Assembly: GCF_001983105.1 (NCBI RefSeq)
Contig: NZ_MOMC01000027.1
Coordinates: 85,730-98,845 of the forward strand
DNA length: 13,116 bases
DNA from: Pseudofrankia asymbiotica
Lineage (GTDB): Bacteria > Actinomycetota > Actinomycetes > Frankiales > Frankiaceae
Direction: 5' to 3'
The notes below the pieces were generated by a model. It was not told the DNA's origin and did not search any database. It saw only the letters and a program-made list of their open reading frames with translations. Positions 5,597-13,004 of the stretch are shown in pieces. Positions within the stretch are counted from its first letter, which is position 1, and the number at the start of each line of letters is the position of its first letter. Position numbers and translations under genes: made by a program.

Positions 5597-5842
5597 ATGG
5601 ATGAGAAGGGCGTTTTCACGCAGATCAACGCACTCGTCGCCGAGGAGCACGAGCTGCGGGCCAAGCGGGCGGCGGGGGAGGTCGACCCCGAGACCGAGCT
5701 CGAGCGGCTCCGCCACGTCGAGGAATCCCTGGACCAGTGCTGGGACCTGCTGCGCCGCCGCGAGGCGCTGCGCGACGCCGGTCTGGACCCCGACGAGGCC
5801 AAGGCGGCCGCGGTCGGCCAGGTCGAGGGTTACATCCAGTAG
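5597..5842 (+). CDS. DUF2630 family protein
   Basis: An 81-residue acidic, mostly helical protein that I recognise as DUF2630, a small actinobacterial family of unknown function. Diagnostic stretches are INALVAEEHELR (10-21), the heptad-like run ELERLRHVEESLDQCWDLLR (34-53) and RREALRDAGLDPDEA (54-68), with the terminal VEGYIQ. It is probably a short antiparallel helical hairpin in the cytoplasm. ATG at 5597 starts the family-like sequence; the frame is open to 5561 but the extra residues are not family-like. Only a weak GGTGG precedes the start, consistent with expression from the upstream hydrolase message. It is convergent with the oxygenase gene, leaving a 31-base gap. Confidence 0.9.
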   Translation: MDEKGVFTQINALVAEEHELRAKRAAGEVDPETELERLRHVEESLDQCWDLLRRREALRDAGLDPDEAKAAAVGQVEGYIQ

Positions 5843-5873: not shown

Positions 5874-6893
5874 TCACGGGCTGACGTGCGGCGCGCGGCG
5901 CGCGGCGGCGGGCACGTAGTGGCGAGGGTCGTCGCGGCGGTCGGCGGGGGGCAGGTTGCGCGCCGGGGTCTCGACCGGCGCGGTGTCGGTGTCGGTGTCG
6001 GACGGGCGTGACCCGGTGGCGCGACGCCAACCGGCCCGAGCCCGCGGATGGAAGCGGCGACTGGGCGGGACGAGCCTCCAACCGAGGTGGACGGCGCGGC
6101 CGGCGAGGCGGAACAGCCGCTCGTCGGCCGCCGTCCATCGATACCCGAACCGGCGGCGCACCGCCTCGGGGAGCAGGCCGACCGTCAGCCAGGTGAACAA
6201 CAGGCGGAACGGCACTCGGGCCGCGCACCAGAGCGGCCACGGCAGCCATCCAAGCGCTGGAGGCCGGTCGAGGTCGCGCAGGTCGAGTACGGCGCGGGCC
6301 GCCGCGGTGTCCTCCAGGACCTCGGCGCACATCCGGTCCCAGTAGGTCACGAAACTCGGCCAGTCCGGCGGCACCGGGCGCATGCTCATCCCGTAGAGCC
6401 GGTACCAGGCGACGTGCTCCGCGTACAGCTGGTCGCGCTGCGCGTCCGTCAGCCCGGGGCCGAAACGCTCTGCCGTCAGCACCGTGAGCATGAAGAACGT
6501 GGCGTGCGCCCAGTAGAAGGTGTCCGGGTCCAGGGCGTGGTAGCGGCGGCCCTGGTCATCGACGCCGCCGATGGCGCGGTGGTAATCGCGGACTGTGCGG
6601 GCGGTCTCCGCGGCGCGCGGGCCGTCGTAGACGACCCCGCCGATCGGGTAGAGCGAGCGCAGCAGCCGCTGCCAGCGTTCCTCGAAGAACCGCGAGTGCC
6701 GCGCCACCCCGGCGCCGAGAGCCGGGTGCGCGTTCTGCATCGCCCCGGCCCACGGCGCGAGCAGCAGCGTGCGCCAGTCCCCGAAGTAACGCCAGGTCAG
6801 TGATTCCGGACCCAGCGGCGCCGGAGCGGGCTGGTCCCGCAACGGCGCAGACCCAGCGGCATCGGTCCCTGTCACGGCTTCCCTGTCAGTCAT
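5874..6893 (-). CDS. MpaB/DUF2236 family oxygenase
   Basis: A 339-residue protein of the ER-bound oxygenase mpaB/latex-clearing-protein family (DUF2236), whose characterised members are heme-containing oxygenases cleaving isoprenoid chains. Family marks in order: HPALGAGVARHSRF (56-69), VYDGPRAAETARTVRDYHRA (88-107) with Arg102 and His105 as likely heme-pocket residues, YHALDPDTFYWAHATFF (118-134), and YRLYGMSMRPVPPDW. A hydrophobic segment around WPLWCAARVPFRLLFTWLT may contact membrane. The C-terminus after about 300 is disordered, with a DTDTDT run from a repeated GGTGTC. No export signal is visible. ATG at 6893 overlaps the GPP34 stop (ATGA), so it is the last gene of the two-component operon. 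The substrate is unknown; a lipid or isoprenoid is inferred from the family and the GPP34 neighbour. Confidence 0.9.
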   Translation of the reverse strand: MTDREAVTGTDAAGSAPLRDQPAPAPLGPESLTWRYFGDWRTLLLAPWAGAMQNAHPALGAGVARHSRFFEERWQRLLRSLYPIGGVVYDGPRAAETARTVRDYHRAIGGVDDQGRRYHALDPDTFYWAHATFFMLTVLTAERFGPGLTDAQRDQLYAEHVAWYRLYGMSMRPVPPDWPSFVTYWDRMCAEVLEDTAAARAVLDLRDLDRPPALGWLPWPLWCAARVPFRLLFTWLTVGLLPEAVRRRFGYRWTAADERLFRLAGRAVHLGWRLVPPSRRFHPRARAGWRRATGSRPSDTDTDTAPVETPARNLPPADRRDDPRHYVPAAARRAPHVSP

Positions 6894-7540
6894 GTGCCGC
6901 CAGCATGGGCCGCCAGCGCCTCGGCCGGCGGACCGGCGAGGGCGGTCAGCGCGGCGATCCGCTCGGGCCACGTCCGCCGTTCCCGGGCGCTGACCAGCGT
7001 GATGACGTCGCCAGCGGCGGCGAGCGCGACCAGCGCGGCCAGCTCCCAGGGCAGCTCGGCGTCGGCGATCTCGCCGCGCAGCGCCCTGGACGCCTCACGG
7101 TTGAGCACACGAACAGTCTGCCGGTCCGGCGGCGACACGGACACGCTCGTGCGCCCCCTGCGTGGCAGCCCGTCCGGATGCGAACCGAGCGTCACCCAGC
7201 CGGCCGCCGCGAGCTCATGGCGCACCATCCGCACGGCTGGCGCCCGGTCGTGCCCGACCCAGTACGCCCACGGCCGGGCCGGCGAGGGCTCGGCCGCGAG
7301 CTGCCGGAACACCAGCCGGGACAGCTGGTCATCCGGCGGCGAGGCGGCGTCGGCCGGTGCCCCGGTGACCAGGGCGAGGCCGTGATCGTCCGAGAGCAGG
7401 CCGTCGTGGTGGAGCTGGGTCAGCGCCGCGGCGCGCAGCGTACGTCCCAGGCCGGGAACGCGGTACATCCGGCCCTTCTCCAGGTTGAACGCGAGCAGGT
7501 AAAGCCGCAGGGACAACGACCGAGGCAGGTTCAGGCTCAC
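6890..7540 (-). CDS. GPP34 (GOLPH3/Vps74-like) domain protein
   Basis: A 216-residue bacterial relative of Golgi phosphoprotein 3. It opens LPRSLSLRLYLLAFN (5-19) and continues with GLGRTLRAAALTQLHHDGLL (30-49), the helical signature of GPP34. Later come an RHELAAAGWV helix, a SVSVSPPDRQTVRVLN segment where the family's beta-hairpin lies, and ALVALAAAGDVI near the C-terminus. Eukaryotic GOLPH3 binds phosphatidylinositol 4-phosphate on membranes; actinobacterial members are common but their ligand is not established, so a membrane-lipid or headgroup adaptor role is inference. GTG at 7540 overlaps the sensor kinase stop codon (GTGA), and the stop overlaps the oxygenase ATG, so all are translationally coupled. 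GGAAG about ten bases upstream is a weak binding site. No signal peptide or membrane span is present. Confidence 0.87.
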   Translation of the reverse strand: MSLNLPRSLSLRLYLLAFNLEKGRMYRVPGLGRTLRAAALTQLHHDGLLSDDHGLALVTGAPADAASPPDDQLSRLVFRQLAAEPSPARPWAYWVGHDRAPAVRMVRHELAAAGWVTLGSHPDGLPRRGRTSVSVSPPDRQTVRVLNREASRALRGEIADAELPWELAALVALAAAGDVITLVSARERRTWPERIAALTALAGPPAEALAAHAGGT

Positions 7541-9198
7541 CCCGAGAGACTTCCAGGGCGAACGGCCCGCGGCGTGGTCAGTTCGCCGACAGGGCCCGCG
7601 CCCGCGCCGGGCCGGTCGGCGAGTGGCATGCGGATCGTGAACGCGGCTCCCCCCTCGGGGGCGGCGGCCGCGTGCGCGTGCCCGCCGAGTCGGGACGCGA
7701 GCCGGGCGACGAGCGCGAGGCCCAGCCCCGTCGAGACCGGCCGCAGGCCGCGGTAGCGCTCGTAGAGCGCCGAGCGCTCGAACGCCACGGCCAGGTCGTC
7801 GTCGGTGAGCCCAGGGCCGCCGTCGCGTACCTCCAGCACCGCGACCGCCGGTCCTGCGCCCTGCGGTCCTGCGCCCTGCGGTCCTGGGCCTGGGCCTGGC
7901 GGCCCCGCGCCGGCCGGTCCCGCGCCTGGCGGTCCCGCGCCGGCCGGTCCCGCGCCCGCGAGCTCGGCGCGGGCCGCGAGCACGATCGGCGCGCCGGCCG
8001 GGACCAGCCGCAGCGCGTTCTCGGCGAGCCCGTCGAGGATCTGGCGCAGCCGGACCGCGTCCGTCACGGCCATGACCGGCCCACCCGGCACCTCCACCCG
8101 CAGCTCGACGCCCTCGGCCGCGCAGCGCCGTCGCCAGACCTCGGCGGCGTCGGCGACGAACCTCGTCAGGTCGACGGGCGCGAGGTCGACGCGGAAGTCG
8201 TCGGCGTCGAGGCGGGCGAGGTCGAGCAGGTCCTGGACGAGCCGGTCCAGCCGCAGCGCCTCGTCGAGGATCACCCGGCCGGCGTCCGGGGTCTGCCCCG
8301 CCGGGGTGACGCCGTCGGCGAGCGCCTCGGCGAAGCCGCGGATCGCGGTCAGCGGCGTCCGCAGCTCGTGCGAGACCGAGAGCAGGAACTCCCGCTGGCG
8401 TGCCTCGCTGACCGTGAGCGCGGTGGCGAGCCCGCCGAGCGCGTCCGCCACGTCGGCGATCTCGGCCGGGCCACCGGACGGCAGCGCGAGCGCCAGGTCG
8501 ACGTCGCGCCGGCCGTGCGCCAGCTCGCGCGCGGCGGCGGCCAGGGCCCGCAGCGGCCGGGCCAGCAGGCGGGCGAGCAGCAGGCCGGCGACCGTCGCCA
8601 CGGCGAGCGCGATCACCAGCGCCACCAGCAGCCGACGCGACAGCGCGGACGTCAGCTCCTGAGCCTGCGAGGCGGGCTGGACGAGCACGATCGTCGAGCC
8701 GTCGGGCAGCGGCCGGGTCGCGATGACGACCCGGCGGCCCGCGGTGGTGCGCACGACGTCGGTTCGGTGGGTGCCGGCGAGCCGACGCAGCGTCGCCGCC
8801 GGCAGCGACGGCGCCCACCGCCCCCCGACGGGGCCCATCGTCGTGCGCACGGCACCGCGCGGGCCGAGGACCAGCAGGCTGACCTGCTGCGACCCGATCG
8901 CGCGGGTGACGCCCGCGCGCAGCTCGGCGGTCGCCTCCGGCTGCTCGTACAGGGCGACGACGAGGTCGGCCTGCCGGCCGAGCACCCGGCGGGCCTGCCC
9001 CTCGCCGACGTCGCCCAGCTGCCCGAGGAACACCGCCCCCGTGATGATCACTCCGAGCAGCGCGACCAGCGTCGTGGCCAGCGCGGTACGCCGCCCGAGC
9101 CCGCCGCCGCGGCCTCGCCGGCGACGCGCGCGGGCCGGATCGCGACGCGTGCGGGCCGGATGGCCGGCTCGCCAGCCGGGTGCGGGCGGGCTAGCCAT
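7537..9198 (-). CDS. HAMP sensor histidine kinase
   Basis: A 553-residue membrane kinase. An Arg-rich N-terminus precedes TM1 (about 38-59). An extracytoplasmic sensor of about 130 residues follows, then TM2 (about 190-211) and a HAMP linker starting ARPLRALAAAARELAHGRRD. The H-box FLLSVSHELRTPLTAI carries the phosphorylated His277. The catalytic domain has an N-box GLAENALRL (Asn394), a G1 box VRDGGPGL (about 457-464), FERS and G2 STGLGLALV. Between N-box and G1, residues 415-449 are a Gly/Pro/Ala repeat not normal for this domain. The N-box has ALR where many kinases have A-x-[RK/H], common in actinobacteria. ATG at 9198 lies inside the regulator's end (8-base overlap); no Shine-Dalgarno is needed if coupled. 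Partner: the upstream OmpR-type regulator. The signal is unknown. Confidence 0.94.
   Translation of the reverse strand: MASPPAPGWRAGHPARTRRDPARARRRRGRGGGLGRRTALATTLVALLGVIITGAVFLGQLGDVGEGQARRVLGRQADLVVALYEQPEATAELRAGVTRAIGSQQVSLLVLGPRGAVRTTMGPVGGRWAPSLPAATLRRLAGTHRTDVVRTTAGRRVVIATRPLPDGSTIVLVQPASQAQELTSALSRRLLVALVIALAVATVAGLLLARLLARPLRALAAAARELAHGRRDVDLALALPSGGPAEIADVADALGGLATALTVSEARQREFLLSVSHELRTPLTAIRGFAEALADGVTPAGQTPDAGRVILDEALRLDRLVQDLLDLARLDADDFRVDLAPVDLTRFVADAAEVWRRRCAAEGVELRVEVPGGPVMAVTDAVRLRQILDGLAENALRLVPAGAPIVLAARAELAGAGPAGAGPPGAGPAGAGPPGPGPGPQGAGPQGAGPAVAVLEVRDGGPGLTDDDLAVAFERSALYERYRGLRPVSTGLGLALVARLASRLGGHAHAAAAPEGGAAFTIRMPLADRPGAGAGPVGELTTPRAVRPGSLSG
7848..7959. repeat. Gly/Pro-coding tandem repeat within the kinase gene
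   Basis: A 15-base unit of the form CGGTCCTGCGCCCTG recurs, first as near-exact copies around 7852-7890 and then as diverged copies (CGGTCCCGCGCC type) to about 7959. Read on the minus strand it encodes a pentapeptide pattern GAGPx repeated about six times, in frame. It is best explained by slippage expansion. Confidence 0.8.
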
Positions 9199-10012
9199 CG
9201 GCGGTGTAGCCGACGCCGCGGACAGTGCGGATCGGTGAGGCGGCGCCGAGCTTGGCGCGGACCTGGGCGACATGGACGTCGACGGTGCGGGTCCCCGCCG
9301 CCGCCTGGTAGCCCCAGACCTGGGAGAGCAGGCGTTCTCGGGTGAAGACGAGCCCGGGGCGGGTGAGCAGCGCGGCCAGCAGGTCGAACTCGGTCGCGGT
9401 CAGCGCGACGGCCTCCCCGCCGGCCCGCACCAGGCGGCGGTCCAGGTCCAGCTCGACGGCGCCCGCGCGCAGCAGGCGGCTCGCCGGCCGGTCCGCCTGG
9501 TGGCCGGCCCGGCGCAGCACCGCGCGCAGCCGGGCCACCAGCTCGCGGGGTGAGAACGGCTTGACGAGGTAGTCGTCCGCGCCGAGCTCCAGGCCGAGGA
9601 TGCGGTCGACCTCGTCGTCTCTCGCCGTGACGAACAGGACCGGCGTCCAGTCGTCGCCAGCGCGCAGCGCCCGCACGACGTCGCGCCCGTCCAGCCCCGG
9701 CAGCCGGATGTCCAGGACGATCGCGACCGGGGCGAGCGCCCGGGCCGCCTCCAGCCCGGCCGCGCCGTCATGGCGGACCTCGACGCCGAACCCCTCCCTG
9801 GTCAGGTAGAGCCGGATCAGGTCGCAGATGTGCGGCTCGTCCTCGACCACCAGCACGAGTCCCGACGACCGCCGCGCCGCCGCGCCCGCCGCCTCCACCC
9901 CCACCCCCACCCCCGCCAAGGGCGCCGACGATTTCGCGGACGTCGAGGATCCGGGCGCGGGCGGCGCGGGCGGCGCGGGCGGTGTCGGCTGGATGGCCGG
10001 CGTCGACGCCAT
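9191..10012 (-). CDS. OmpR/PhoB family response regulator
   Basis: A 273-residue two-component response regulator. Residues 1-50 are an unusual Pro/Ala/Gly-rich leader (APPAPPAPPAPG type). The receiver domain starts VLVVEDE (acidic pair Glu57/Asp58), with phospho-acceptor Asp101 in VLDIRLPGLDG, Thr129 in LFVTARDDEVDR and Lys151 in YLVKPFSPREL. The C-terminal winged helix has TATEFDLLAALL, FTRERLLSQVWGY, RTVDVHVAQVRAKL and IRTVRGVGY, all typical of OmpR/PhoB. Phosphorylation by the overlapping kinase would control DNA binding, probably at its own promoter in 10013-10148. ATG at 10012 is the best start, with AGGTGGG ten bases upstream; the frame is open to 10171, but that stretch is antisense to the start of the DUF1800 gene. 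Most homologues begin directly at the receiver domain. Confidence 0.94.
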   Translation of the reverse strand: MASTPAIQPTPPAPPAPPAPGSSTSAKSSAPLAGVGVGVEAAGAAARRSSGLVLVVEDEPHICDLIRLYLTREGFGVEVRHDGAAGLEAARALAPVAIVLDIRLPGLDGRDVVRALRAGDDWTPVLFVTARDDEVDRILGLELGADDYLVKPFSPRELVARLRAVLRRAGHQADRPASRLLRAGAVELDLDRRLVRAGGEAVALTATEFDLLAALLTRPGLVFTRERLLSQVWGYQAAAGTRTVDVHVAQVRAKLGAASPIRTVRGVGYTADG

Positions 10013-10148
10013 CGGGAGGTTTCCCACCTGCCCAGTCTGCGGCGCCGCGTACCCTTCGCCGACCCCGGCCAGGCAACGGCTGGATTGTCTTACCGTTCTC
10101 GAACATGGCGGCCATGGCACGCTGACGGTCCGCTGGGACGGTCTGTCC
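10013..10148. promoter_or_regulatory. Divergent intergenic region, regulator operon versus DUF1800
   Basis: These 136 bases must hold outward promoters for both units. I find no convincing -35/-10 pair in either direction. A small inverted pair AACGG (10075-10079) and CCGTT (10093-10097), separated by 13 bases, is the only symmetrical element that could be a protein site, and it is weak. AGGTGGG serves the regulator start, and GGGACGG (10135-10141) serves the DUF1800 start with a seven-base spacing. Confidence 0.4.
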
Positions 10149-11537
10149 ATGGCCACCGCGCGTTCCGACATCGCGTTCCTCCACCGGCGGGCCGGGTTCG
10201 GCGCGAGCCCGGCCCAGCTCGACGCCGCCGTGGCCGGCGGATACGACGCGGCCGTCGACGCTCTGGTCGGCGTGGGCGCCCGCGCTGACGCGGACCCGGA
10301 GCCGCCGCCGACGTTCGCGCCGCTGCCCAGGCTGGCCGACGTCCGGACGGACCCCCAGGCACGGTCGACCTACGCCCAGATGGTGCGCCAGCAGGGGACC
10401 GAGCTGACCGGCTGGTGGGTGCGCCGGATGGTCGCCTCCGCCGACCCGTTCACCGAGAAGCTCACGTTCTTCTGGCACGGGCACTTCGCGACGTCGATCA
10501 CCAAGGTGCGGGTGGCGCAGGCGATGCTCGCGCAGAACGAGATCTTCCGGCGTTCCGGGAACGGCCCGTTCGACGCGCTCACTCTCGCGGTCGCCCGCGA
10601 CCCGGCGATGCTGGCCTGGCTCGACGCCGGGCAGAACCGCAAGGAGCACCCGAACGAGAACTTCTCCCGGGAGCTGATGGAGCTGTTCACGCTCGGCATC
10701 GGCAACTACACCGAGACCGACGTCCGGGAGGCGGCGCGCGCCTTCACCGGCTGGCGGGTGGACGCGAGCCGCACCGGTTTCCAACTGGCCGCGAAGCAGC
10801 ACGACGACGGGACGAAGACGGTCCTCGGCAAGACCGGCGACCTCGGCGGCGAGGACGTGATCGCCCTGGTGACCCACCAGCCGGCCTCGGCCCGGTGGGT
10901 CTGCGCCCGGCTTTTCAGCCGGTTCGCGGCGCCTGTCGAGCCCGACGCGAACCCGGCGGCCGACGCGATGCTGACGGCCTACGGCTCGGCGCTCGACGCT
11001 GGCGCCGCCGTCGCGGCCATGCTGCGCTCGCCGGCGTTCCTCGCGAGCCGGGGCAAGCTCGTCGCCCAGCCGGTCGAGTACGTCGTCACGACGCTGCGGG
11101 CGCTCGGCCTGCGGGTCACGCCGGCCGCCGATGGCTCCGCGGACGCCTCCGCCGGCGCTGGTGGAGGCGGCGGGGCAGGGACCGACGTCGCGGCCGGCAG
11201 CGGGGCACTGCCGCAGCGCGCGGTGCTGGCCGCGCTCGCCGGCCTCGGACAGGTGCCGTTCCAGCCGCCGAGCGTCGGCGGCTGGCCCGAGAACGCGGCC
11301 TGGCTGACGACGGCGTCCACCCAGGTGCGTACCAGGTTCGCCACGGCGGCCGCCGCGGCGGCGAACCTGGCCTCGATCGCCGACGAGCCGGCCGCCGGCA
11401 GGCCGGACGCCGTCGCCCACCTGCTGTCCCTCGACGGCTGGACCGCCCGCACCCGCGAGGCGATGACCGGCGCCGGCGGCAACCCGGCCCGCCTCGTCGC
11501 GCTGGCCCTGCTCTCACCCGAGTACCTGACCGTCTAG
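10149..11537 (+). CDS. DUF1800 family protein
   Basis: A 462-residue member of DUF1800, a widespread family of unknown biochemical function usually found beside DUF1501. Diagnostic parts are AFLHRRAGFGASPAQLDAAV (9-28), FFWHGHFATS (107-116), the block NENFSRELMELFTLG (169-183), EAARAFTGWRV (194-204), LVAQPVEYVVTTLRALG (304-320) and the FQPPSVGGWPENAAW region. A Gly/Ala/Ser-rich insert covers about 326-355. No signal peptide or membrane segment is visible, although the DUF1501 partner has a Tat signal, so it may stay in the cytoplasm or be exported bound to it. ATG at 10149 is chosen by the family-typical N-terminus and the GGGACGG upstream; the frame extends to 9828, but that part is antisense to the regulator. 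The DUF1501 gene follows after 69 bases. Confidence 0.93.
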   Translation: MATARSDIAFLHRRAGFGASPAQLDAAVAGGYDAAVDALVGVGARADADPEPPPTFAPLPRLADVRTDPQARSTYAQMVRQQGTELTGWWVRRMVASADPFTEKLTFFWHGHFATSITKVRVAQAMLAQNEIFRRSGNGPFDALTLAVARDPAMLAWLDAGQNRKEHPNENFSRELMELFTLGIGNYTETDVREAARAFTGWRVDASRTGFQLAAKQHDDGTKTVLGKTGDLGGEDVIALVTHQPASARWVCARLFSRFAAPVEPDANPAADAMLTAYGSALDAGAAVAAMLRSPAFLASRGKLVAQPVEYVVTTLRALGLRVTPAADGSADASAGAGGGGGAGTDVAAGSGALPQRAVLAALAGLGQVPFQPPSVGGWPENAAWLTTASTQVRTRFATAAAAAANLASIADEPAAGRPDAVAHLLSLDGWTARTREAMTGAGGNPARLVALALLSPEYLTV

Positions 11538-11606
11538 GACACCACCCTGGAAGCCCGGAGGCCACGGAATCTCGGCGGCCCGGAAACCACGAAGGAGGAG
11601 GGCCCG

Positions 11607-13004
11607 ATGCCGTTCGACCGGCGCCGGTTTCTGATCGCGTCCGGGGTGACCGGGGGGCTCGCCGCGGCCACCACCGCCGGCGTCGTGTCCTACCGGGAGC
11701 TGCACCACAGCGCCGCCCAGGAGCCGCTGGCCGGGGGCGGTGTCCTCGTCGTCGTCACCCTCTACGGCGGCAACGACGGGCTGAACATGGTGATCCCCGT
11801 CGAGGACCCGGCCTACCGGGCCGCGCGCGGCGAGCTGGCCTACTCCGCCGAGCAGGCGCTCCCGCTCACCGACGGTTTCGCGCTGCATCCCGCGATGACC
11901 GGGCTTCGCAAGCTGTGGGACGACCGTCGCCTGGCGATCATCCGGGGTGTCGGCTACCCGAAGCCGGACCACAGCCATTTCCGGTCGATGGCGATCTGGC
12001 AGACCGCCTCCCCGGGCACGACGTCGACGACCGGATGGCTCGGCCGCTGGCTCGACGCCCAGGCCAGGACCTCCACGGGCGGCACGCCGGGACCGGGCAT
12101 CTGGTCGGCACCGGCCGGCTCGTCGATACCGGGCAGCGCCGCCGCGCTGCGGGCGGTATCGGTCGGCCCGACGCTCGCCCCGCTGGTCGTCGGCGCGACG
12201 ACCGCCGCCGCGGCCGTCCCCACCGGCCCGTTCGCCGCGCCCGGCGGCGCGATCGGCCAGGAGTCGCGCCAGCTCTACCGCCCCGACCCGGCGGATGGCC
12301 CGCTCGCTGCCCGGGTCGCCTCGTCCGGCGCCGATCTGTTCACCGTCGCGGGCACGCTCGGCCCGGTGCTCGCGAACGAGACGGACCAGGACCAGGGCCC
12401 TGCCGGGCAGCTGGACGCCGGCGGAGGCGACGACACCGCCGCGACCCCGCCCGCCGCGTCGACCGCGTCGCCCTCGGCGTCGGCGGCGCCGACCGGGCCG
12501 ACCGGGCCGACCGCGGCGAAGGCCGGCGCGCTGGGGGCGCAGCTCGACGTGGTCGCCGCCTGCATCCGCGCCGGCGTGCCGACCAGGGCCTACTCGGTCA
12601 ACCTCGGCGGCTTCGACACCCACATCATGGAGAAGGCGACCCAGGCGAAGCTGCTCGGTGAGCTGGACGCCGCGCTCACCCGCTTCCAGGCCGCCGTCGG
12701 CGGCGACCCGCACGGGACGGCGGTCACGACGGTGGTCTACTCGGAGTTCGGCCGGCGGGTCGCGGCCAACGCCAACGACGGCACCGACCACGGCACCGCC
12801 GCCCCCGTTCTCGTCCTGGGCACGGGCGTCCGCGGCGGCTTCCACGGCGACGCCCCGAGCCTGACCAACCTGGACGACGGCGACCTGAGGTTCACCACCG
12901 ACTTCCGCTCCATCTACGCCACCCTTCTGGAACGCGTCCTCGGAACCGAGGCCGGCGTCGTGCTCGGCTCCAAGGAACGCTTCCCTCGCCTGGCCTTCCT
13001 CTGA
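11607..13004 (+). CDS. DUF1501 family protein with Tat signal
   Basis: A 465-residue DUF1501 protein, a family related to the alkaline phosphatase/sulfatase fold. The N-terminus MPFDRRRFLIASGVTGG has a twin-arginine motif (Arg5-Arg7) before a moderately hydrophobic stretch, so export by the Tat pathway is likely. Family marks: TLYGGNDGLNMVIP (51-64), GVGYPKPDHSHFRSMAIWQT (114-133), GWLGRWLD, GGFDTHI (334-340), YSEFGRRVAAN (378-388) and TDHGTAAP (393-400). The Asp and His residues in these could bind metal, as in related phosphatases; activity is unproven. Residues 259-305 are a low-complexity Asp/Ala/Pro/Thr insert. AAGGAGG at 11592-11598, eight bases before the ATG, is the best ribosome binding site in the window. 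It is probably co-transcribed with DUF1800. Confidence 0.94.
   Translation: MPFDRRRFLIASGVTGGLAAATTAGVVSYRELHHSAAQEPLAGGGVLVVVTLYGGNDGLNMVIPVEDPAYRAARGELAYSAEQALPLTDGFALHPAMTGLRKLWDDRRLAIIRGVGYPKPDHSHFRSMAIWQTASPGTTSTTGWLGRWLDAQARTSTGGTPGPGIWSAPAGSSIPGSAAALRAVSVGPTLAPLVVGATTAAAAVPTGPFAAPGGAIGQESRQLYRPDPADGPLAARVASSGADLFTVAGTLGPVLANETDQDQGPAGQLDAGGGDDTAATPPAASTASPSASAAPTGPTGPTAAKAGALGAQLDVVAACIRAGVPTRAYSVNLGGFDTHIMEKATQAKLLGELDAALTRFQAAVGGDPHGTAVTTVVYSEFGRRVAANANDGTDHGTAAPVLVLGTGVRGGFHGDAPSLTNLDDGDLRFTTDFRSIYATLLERVLGTEAGVVLGSKERFPRLAFL

What the first reader, a model, noticed from the sequence alone, without database searches (positions are those of the whole stretch)
5874..10012. Two-component system fused by overlaps to a GPP34 protein and an MpaB-type oxygenase
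The four minus-strand genes overlap by 8, 4 and 4 bases (regulator/kinase, kinase/GPP34 via GTGA, GPP34/oxygenase via ATGA), so they should be made in fixed proportion. Bacterial GPP34 proteins have no established job; eukaryotic GOLPH3 reads a phosphoinositide on membranes. MpaB/Lcp relatives are heme oxygenases of isoprenoid-type substrates. The inferred system is a membrane-signal-responsive unit in which the GPP34 protein recruits or presents a membrane lipid to the oxygenase, either as lipid modification or as defence against membrane damage.
Basis: partly seen in the sequence, partly recalled or inferred. Interest (0 to 1): 0.7.

Follow-up and report, generated by a model that had tools for sequence, protein, structure and literature searches.

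The report
GOLPH3-like protein paired with heme oxygenase
In some soil and plant-associated bacteria a relative of the Golgi protein GOLPH3 sits directly in front of a heme enzyme that probably breaks carbon-carbon double bonds, and this pairing seems to have arisen at least twice, which suggests the two proteins work together; the signalling genes beside them here are only neighbours.

Summary
The four overlapping minus-strand genes are real: response regulator, histidine kinase, GPP34 protein, DUF2236/MpaB oxygenase (overlaps 8, 4, 4 bp). They are not one conserved unit. The regulator-kinase pair goes with divergent DUF1800-DUF1501 genes and is kept without an intact GPP34-oxygenase pair in five of seven kinase-bearing genus genomes. 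GPP34-oxygenase is a separate cassette between the kinase and a convergent DUF2630 gene: of eight genus genomes three keep both genes (one without the kinase), one keeps GPP34 only, one holds a deletion scar, three have neither there. The GPP34-oxygenase adjacency recurs: five Streptomyces genomes have the same order near ssrA, with a phylogenetically separate GPP34 clade (AU p = 0.0008), which favours two independent pairings. Both paired GPP34 groups lack the hydrophobic hairpin tip seen in 52 of 55 unpaired relatives. The oxygenase model matches t-anethole oxygenase and latex clearing protein and keeps their heme-site motif. Best reading: a GOLPH3-fold accessory subunit of a b-heme alkene-cleaving oxygenase, only locally placed beside this two-component system. 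Against: most Streptomyces oxygenases of this kind are unpaired. Substrate, lipid binding and contact are untested. No paper naming both families was found (two searches).

The parts
5874..6893 (-). MpaB/Lcp-type heme oxygenase (PF09995, DUF2236), 339 aa
6654..6668 (-). oxygenase residues R76-x-x-R79-S80, fitting the heme-pocket pattern R-x-x-K-T of Lcp and R-x-x-K-R of Nro1
   Evidence: R76, R79, S80 invariant in 35 of 35; R76 in 21 of 21; pattern from passages; mapping is by motif, not by coordinates
6579..6581 (-). oxygenase His105, candidate proximal heme ligand
   Evidence: invariant in 35 of 35 and 21 of 21; correspondence to Lcp His198 is inferred
6890..7540 (-). GPP34 (GOLPH3-fold) protein of the 'SLPA' type (my label), 216 aa
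7145..7192 (-). GPP34 residues 117-132: altered hairpin (mean pLDDT of its blocks 53 to 89) in place of the hydrophobic tip of unpaired relatives
7537..9198 (-). sensor histidine kinase (HAMP, HisKA, HATPase_c); belongs with DUF1800-DUF1501
9191..10012 (-). OmpR-type response regulator; conserved core begins near 9860, extension to 10012 unsupported
9828..11537 (+). DUF1800 protein, divergent neighbour conserved with the regulator-kinase pair in the genus
11607..13004 (+). DUF1501 protein, next to DUF1800
5597..5842 (+). DUF2630 gene, convergent with the oxygenase; far flank of the cassette

Best explanation
GPP34 and the oxygenase form a two-gene enzyme module. The oxygenase is a globin-fold, probably b-heme dioxygenase that cleaves a C=C bond in a hydrophobic alkene (isoprenoid-like or aryl-alkene). 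The GPP34 protein is its accessory subunit, most likely an adaptor or stabiliser that holds the oxygenase or its substrate, with the altered hairpin as a likely contact surface. In this genome the module sits at the 3' end of a resident two-component operon with which it is probably co-transcribed; that two-component system is an older, separate unit with DUF1800-DUF1501. Shown: anatomy, predicted folds, dissociation from the kinase, recurrent adjacency, absence of the hairpin tip. Inferred: heme binding, reaction type, physical contact, co-transcription. Unknown: substrate.
Against: GPP34 persists intact without the oxygenase in G004. GPP34 was found beside only 3 of the 17 oxygenase loci of the Streptomyces genus (one of them, G315, lies at a contig end). 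In G430 and G416 the oxygenase stays at ssrA without GPP34, so it does not always need GPP34. Of the four descendants in the regulator-kinase tree one lost the oxygenase and one both genes. In Streptomyces the two genes do not overlap but are 52 to 165 nt apart by my gene caller. The AU test group was named after an earlier tree had been seen, and GPP34 evolves faster than the oxygenase. Hydrophobic-residue counts of the hairpin overlap (paired 2-3; others mean 4.6, range 2-7). Foldseek alone gave Lcp only E 0.017 (probability 1.00) and no match at E <= 0.001 for the oxygenase. No co-fold or binding data.
Confidence: 0.5

Rival explanations
1. Chance or hitch-hiking neighbours: GPP34 and DUF2236 are both multi-copy families, and the oxygenase simply landed next to a GPP34 gene in two lineages; the four genes may share a transcript but no function.
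For: The eight genus genomes hold 2 to 6 PF09995 matches and 1 to 4 GPP34 matches each; most oxygenases of the kind are unpaired; the cassette decays readily. In Streptomyces the pair sits near ssrA, a known integration site (recalled).
Against: Two phylogenetically separate GPP34 clades are paired with the same oxygenase subfamily, in the same order and orientation, and both lack the hairpin tip. Chance adjacency is of the order of 0.1 or less per survey by my own rough arithmetic from copy numbers and genome sizes; no call tests this formally.
Confidence: 0.3
2. One reading: a four-gene membrane-signal unit in which the kinase senses membrane state and GPP34 presents a membrane lipid to the oxygenase.
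For: Overlapping genes, with overlapping junctions also in G006 (kinase-GPP34 GTGA; GPP34-oxygenase 8 bp). The arginine aligned with GOLPH3 R90 (recalled PI4P-pocket residue) is kept in 40 of 40 relatives, and in the G118 and G476 partners three of the four recalled pocket residues (W81, R90, R171) align with the same residue.
Against: The kinase pair goes with DUF1800-DUF1501 and lacks the intact GPP34-oxygenase pair in five of seven kinase-bearing genus genomes; G007 keeps the pair without a detected kinase; no kinase relative near the Streptomyces pairs. In the window protein only R90 of the four pocket residues is clearly kept. The hydrophobic hairpin tip is absent.
Confidence: 0.1
3. A single ancient GPP34-oxygenase pair inherited in both lineages, with GPP34 evolving fast and the oxygenase lost from the unpaired relatives of the Frankia-type GPP34.
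For: Same gene order; oxygenases of both lineages fall in one supported clade of 24 rows (98/92); within the Streptomyces pairs GPP34 is only 47-51% identical between subgroups where the oxygenase is 76-78%.
Against: The Frankia-type paired GPP34s group with six unpaired ones of a related genus (100/99), and a common clade of paired ones is rejected (p = 0.000784).
Confidence: 0.2

Closest known systems
GOLPH3/Vps74 family (PF05719), including S. coelicolor SCO4440
   Different: Belongs to the SLPA type, separate from the canonical actinobacterial type in the tree; hydrophobic hairpin tip replaced; partner is an oxygenase, whereas SCO4440 lies beside the D-Ala-D-Ala carboxypeptidase SCO4439. 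SCO4440 itself was not compared here.
t-anethole oxygenase of Stenotrophomonas maltophilia (PDB 8s1j) and MpaB-family oxygenases such as Nro1 of Gordonia
   Different: 13% identity to 8s1j; substrate unknown; the Nro1 passages that I saw name no GPP34 partner, and I saw no paper on 8s1j.
Latex clearing protein LcpK30 (5o1l/5o1m)
   Different: 14 to 15% identity; Lcp is extracellular (abstract start in the listing), whereas no secretion signal is evident here by eye (no signal-peptide program was run); the distal lysine position is arginine here if the motif mapping holds.
OmpR-type two-component systems (CreBC, MtrAB, CseBC)
   Same: Domain order and best NCBIfam profiles.
   Different: Below the cut-off of each of the 25 families shown for kinase and for regulator; neighbours are DUF1800-DUF1501.

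Membership tests
GPP34/GOLPH3 (PF05719) | Profile match above the curated cut-off | tested here: met
   56.3 bits versus 29.1
GPP34/GOLPH3 (PF05719) | GOLPH3 fold | tested here: met
GPP34/GOLPH3 (PF05719) | PI4P pocket W81, R90, R171, R174 (human numbering, recalled; a feature of the eukaryotic effector) | tested here: inconclusive
   By sequence alignment the window protein keeps R90 (as R36); W81, R171 and R174 fall on R27, A100 and V103, with arginines close by. In G118 and G476 W81, R90 and R171 are matched
GPP34/GOLPH3 (PF05719) | Hydrophobic membrane-insertion hairpin (role recalled) | tested here: not met
   Tip motif absent in sequence; lipid binding itself not testable here
MPAB_Lcp_cat heme oxygenases (PF09995) | Profile match above the curated cut-off | tested here: met
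   242 bits versus 23
MPAB_Lcp_cat heme oxygenases (PF09995) | Fold of t-anethole oxygenase/Lcp | tested here: met
MPAB_Lcp_cat heme oxygenases (PF09995) | Proximal His and R-x-x-K/R-T/S/R pocket pattern | tested here: met
   His105 and R76 invariant in 35 of 35 and 21 of 21; R79 and S80 in 35 of 35; mapping to Lcp by motif only
MPAB_Lcp_cat heme oxygenases (PF09995) | Bound b-type heme and C=C cleavage | not testable with these tools
   needs protein
OmpR-type two-component system | HisKA/HATPase kinase with receiver and Trans_reg_C regulator | tested here: met
Known equivalog (CreBC, MtrAB, CseBC, BaeSR) | Score above the NCBIfam equivalog cut-off | tested here: not met
   CreB 213 of 273, BaeS_SmeS 147 of 500, and the others shown also below (best 25 shown for each)
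Known anti-phage defence system | PADLOC profile match | tested here: not met
   0 matches for the 6 proteins scanned; the regulator was not scanned

The most novel reading that the evidence does not exclude
Bacterial GOLPH3-fold proteins are enzyme adaptors: this subfamily was recruited twice as the partner of a heme alkene-cleaving oxygenase, and in each case gave up its membrane-inserting hairpin tip for a protein-binding surface. This would mean that the adaptor role of eukaryotic GOLPH3, which holds Golgi glycosyltransferases (recalled), has a bacterial counterpart that can be studied with two small proteins.
Probability: 0.28. Interest if true: 0.75.

Novelty: new variant of a known kind. 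Interest (0 to 1): 0.52.

Why it matters
Bacterial GPP34 proteins are common in actinomycetes but have almost no known function; SCO4440 is the one with a phenotype that I met in the searches. A defined enzyme partner, two apparent pairings and a matching sequence change give a direct way to ask what a bacterial GOLPH3 fold does. It would also point to an accessory factor for MpaB/TAO-type oxygenases, which are of use for alkene and rubber cleavage.

Tried and rejected
Sequence search of the GPP34 protein alone against PDB gave only weak Trp-repressor matches (E 0.16 or more), taken as chance; profile A2 gave ribosomal L18 first and Vps74 at E 0.24, while the broader profile A4 finds GOLPH3 at 1e-25. 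The oxygenase alone and profile A3 found no PDB sequence relative; profile A5 found Lcp only weakly (E 0.005). The fold comparisons carry both assignments.

A pattern scan of viral contigs found no relative of this GPP34. Among plasmid records one, a 2.66-Mb Nocardia farcinica record, holds a 40% oxygenase relative. A survey of 250 genomes of the family of G256 found no oxygenase at E <= 1e-90; it says little.

First regulator-kinase species tree was faulty because my script took a single HMMER stretch of each kinase; that tree is discarded and replaced. The in-frame upstream translations are used.

Defence reading not supported: no PADLOC match among the six proteins scanned. G037 has a GPP34 gene about 2.5 kb from a 39% oxygenase relative; not contiguous, not counted as a pair.

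Samples that I chose: A2 holds 40 of 62 GPP34 hits; A3 holds 35 of the 120 listed oxygenase hits, of 1843 found; A5 holds the window and 20 of 27 extracted DUF2236 loci; the 64-row GPP34 tree holds only SLPA-type rows. Of the 48 oxygenase loci four are the same place fetched twice.

Full report
Observation. The window lies at G000 C97 85730-98845, a 9.4-Mb genome in 174 contigs. The four minus-strand frames and their 8-, 4- and 4-bp overlaps are exactly as reported. Pfam: oxygenase PF09995 242 bits; GPP34 PF05719 56 bits; kinase HAMP, HisKA, HATPase_c; regulator Response_reg and Trans_reg_C. The regulator start at 10012 is doubtful, since conserved sequence begins near 9860 and the upstream frame diverges. 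On the other strand lie DUF1800 (9828-11537), DUF1501 (11607-13004) and DUF2630 (5597-5842).

The two-component system is a separate unit. A kinase relative at E <= 1e-60 is found in 20 of 58 genomes searched, including 7 of the 8 genus genomes (all but G007, 93% complete). In six of those seven (the window, G001, G002, G003, G005, G006) the regulator-kinase pair lies beside DUF1800 and DUF1501; in G004 only a partial DUF1800 match is seen, at the contig end. In three genomes of a related genus (G008, G017, G023) the pair also lies beside DUF1501-DUF1800; in the other ten loci read (L128 to L137, some short) phmmer with the window proteins found neither. G001, G002 and G003 have neither GPP34 nor oxygenase between the kinase and the DUF2630 gene.

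The cassette. G004 (contig length as Frankia nepalensis) has an intact GPP34 there but no oxygenase; its PF09995 genes elsewhere are distant from this one (best 32% identity). G005 keeps about the first 27 codons of GPP34 and the last 24 bases of the oxygenase, with a deletion between, and about 226 bp of other sequence in the kinase 3' end. G007 (contig length as MAG HOG45C) keeps GPP34-oxygenase with DUF2630 still downstream, and on the other side a glyoxalase-family gene (same Pfam family as one in the window; not compared directly) and a GNAT gene 59% identical to that of the window, but no regulator-kinase pair was found there. The regulator-kinase tree puts G001-G003 outside (G004, (G000, G005, G006)) (99/98; G007 is not in it); the simplest history is one insertion, then loss of the oxygenase in G004 and of both in G005. 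So kinase and cassette dissociate in both directions.

Recurrence of the pairing. An oxygenase at E <= 1e-90 is found in 15 of 246 genomes of the genus of G118. That genus is Streptomyces: the G430 oxygenase is identical to the S. gobiensis protein P0115 and the contig lengths agree. Of 48 oxygenase-centred loci read with a GPP34 profile (44 different places), 17 of them from this genus, three have GPP34 directly upstream (G118, G476, G564). Searching 392 genomes of the genus with the G118 GPP34 gave 73 places in 70 genomes; 30 loci were returned and read: the five best (48-100% identity: G118, G476, G845, G564, G930) all have the oxygenase directly downstream, the other 25 (44% or less) do not. 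In all, 77 GPP34-centred loci were read and 6 hold both genes: those five and the window's own. The Streptomyces genes are in the same order and orientation but 52 to 165 nt apart by my gene caller, not overlapping. The pairs lie near ssrA (in G564 an MFS gene lies between); in G430 and G416 the oxygenase is at ssrA without GPP34. No relative of the window's kinase or regulator is found (E <= 1e-3) in the 16 kb around each of the five pairs.

In the first survey of 58 relatives, 38 have a GPP34 match and 46 an oxygenase-type match at E <= 0.001; comparing the listed places, the genes are contiguous in three (G000, G006, G007) and 2.5 kb apart in one (G037).

Phylogeny. In a tree of 64 SLPA-type GPP34 proteins the five Streptomyces paired ones form one clade (100/97) and the Frankia-type paired ones plus G004 another (100/99) whose sister is six unpaired proteins of a related genus (100/99). 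Holding all nine together is rejected (log-likelihood 72 lower, p-AU 0.000784), but the group had been seen in an earlier tree and GPP34 evolves faster than the oxygenase (48% versus 77% identity between G118 and G564). In the oxygenase tree of 68 rows the Frankia-type clade is sister to two mainly Streptomyces subclades: nine rows, none known to be paired, and twelve rows with five known paired (some rows there are database proteins, or a locus at a contig end, whose neighbours were not seen). Two independent pairings are favoured; one ancient pair is not excluded.

Mechanism. Most likely the oxygenase cleaves a C=C bond in a hydrophobic substrate and GPP34 is its accessory subunit; the altered hairpin would be a natural contact surface. 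In the five unpaired Streptomyces loci whose neighbours I read (L172, L173, L208 to L210) the oxygenase lies beside what look like the same regulator and transporter genes (TetR and MFS by Pfam in L208 only), which suggests catabolism or detoxification of a small hydrophobic compound. Co-transcription with the two-component system is inferred from the overlaps. Membrane-lipid presentation and defence are unproven.

Literature. Searches for GOLPH3 with MpaB and for GPP34 with DUF2236 found no paper; the library is open-access only. SCO4440 is the one bacterial GPP34 protein with a phenotype that I met (PMC12402492, abstract and passages; also PMC13238533, passages).

Verdict. The gene structure is real, the four-gene system is not a conserved unit, and the GPP34-oxygenase pair is a plausible and, as far as these two searches show, undescribed two-protein module.

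Noticed in passing
window 9191-13004; L063, L123-L127, L138, L139: Regulator-kinase next to DUF1800-DUF1501 is the conserved neighbourhood in genomes of two genera; these two DUF families could be the real output of this two-component system.
   Followed up: partly
L140, L170, L171, L206, L207, L174, L212: In Streptomyces the GPP34-oxygenase pair, or the oxygenase alone (G430, G416), lies near the tmRNA gene ssrA, downstream of genes that look by eye like ftsE, ftsX and smpB (not called by a profile; L212 neighbours not read).
   Followed up: partly
window about 7835-7955: Kinase carries a GAGPAGAGPP-type low-complexity repeat inside its ATPase region; the matched kinase length varies from 526 to 574 aa among the genus genomes.
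   Followed up: no
window 9828-9862: Predicted DUF1800 start lies head-to-head inside the 5' end of the regulator core; one of the two start calls is probably wrong.
   Followed up: partly
L187, L195, L201: Three unpaired Streptomyces GPP34 proteins also lack the hydrophobic hairpin tip; no oxygenase lies within the 1.5 kb read on each side, so another partner may exist.
   Followed up: partly
alignment A4: Two actinobacterial GPP34 types: the SLPA type has an arginine at the GOLPH3 R90 position (14 of 14 rows), the canonical type does not (0 of 9); the G118 and G476 partners also match W81 and R171.
   Followed up: partly
L126 (G005) between kinase and DUF2630 gene; read in L105: Deletion scar: GPP34 start and oxygenase end remain, and about 226 bp of other sequence stands in the kinase 3' end.
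   Followed up: yes
L172, L173, L208-L210: Unpaired Streptomyces relatives of the oxygenase have what look like the same TetR regulator and MFS transporter as neighbours (Pfam run for L208 only).
   Followed up: partly
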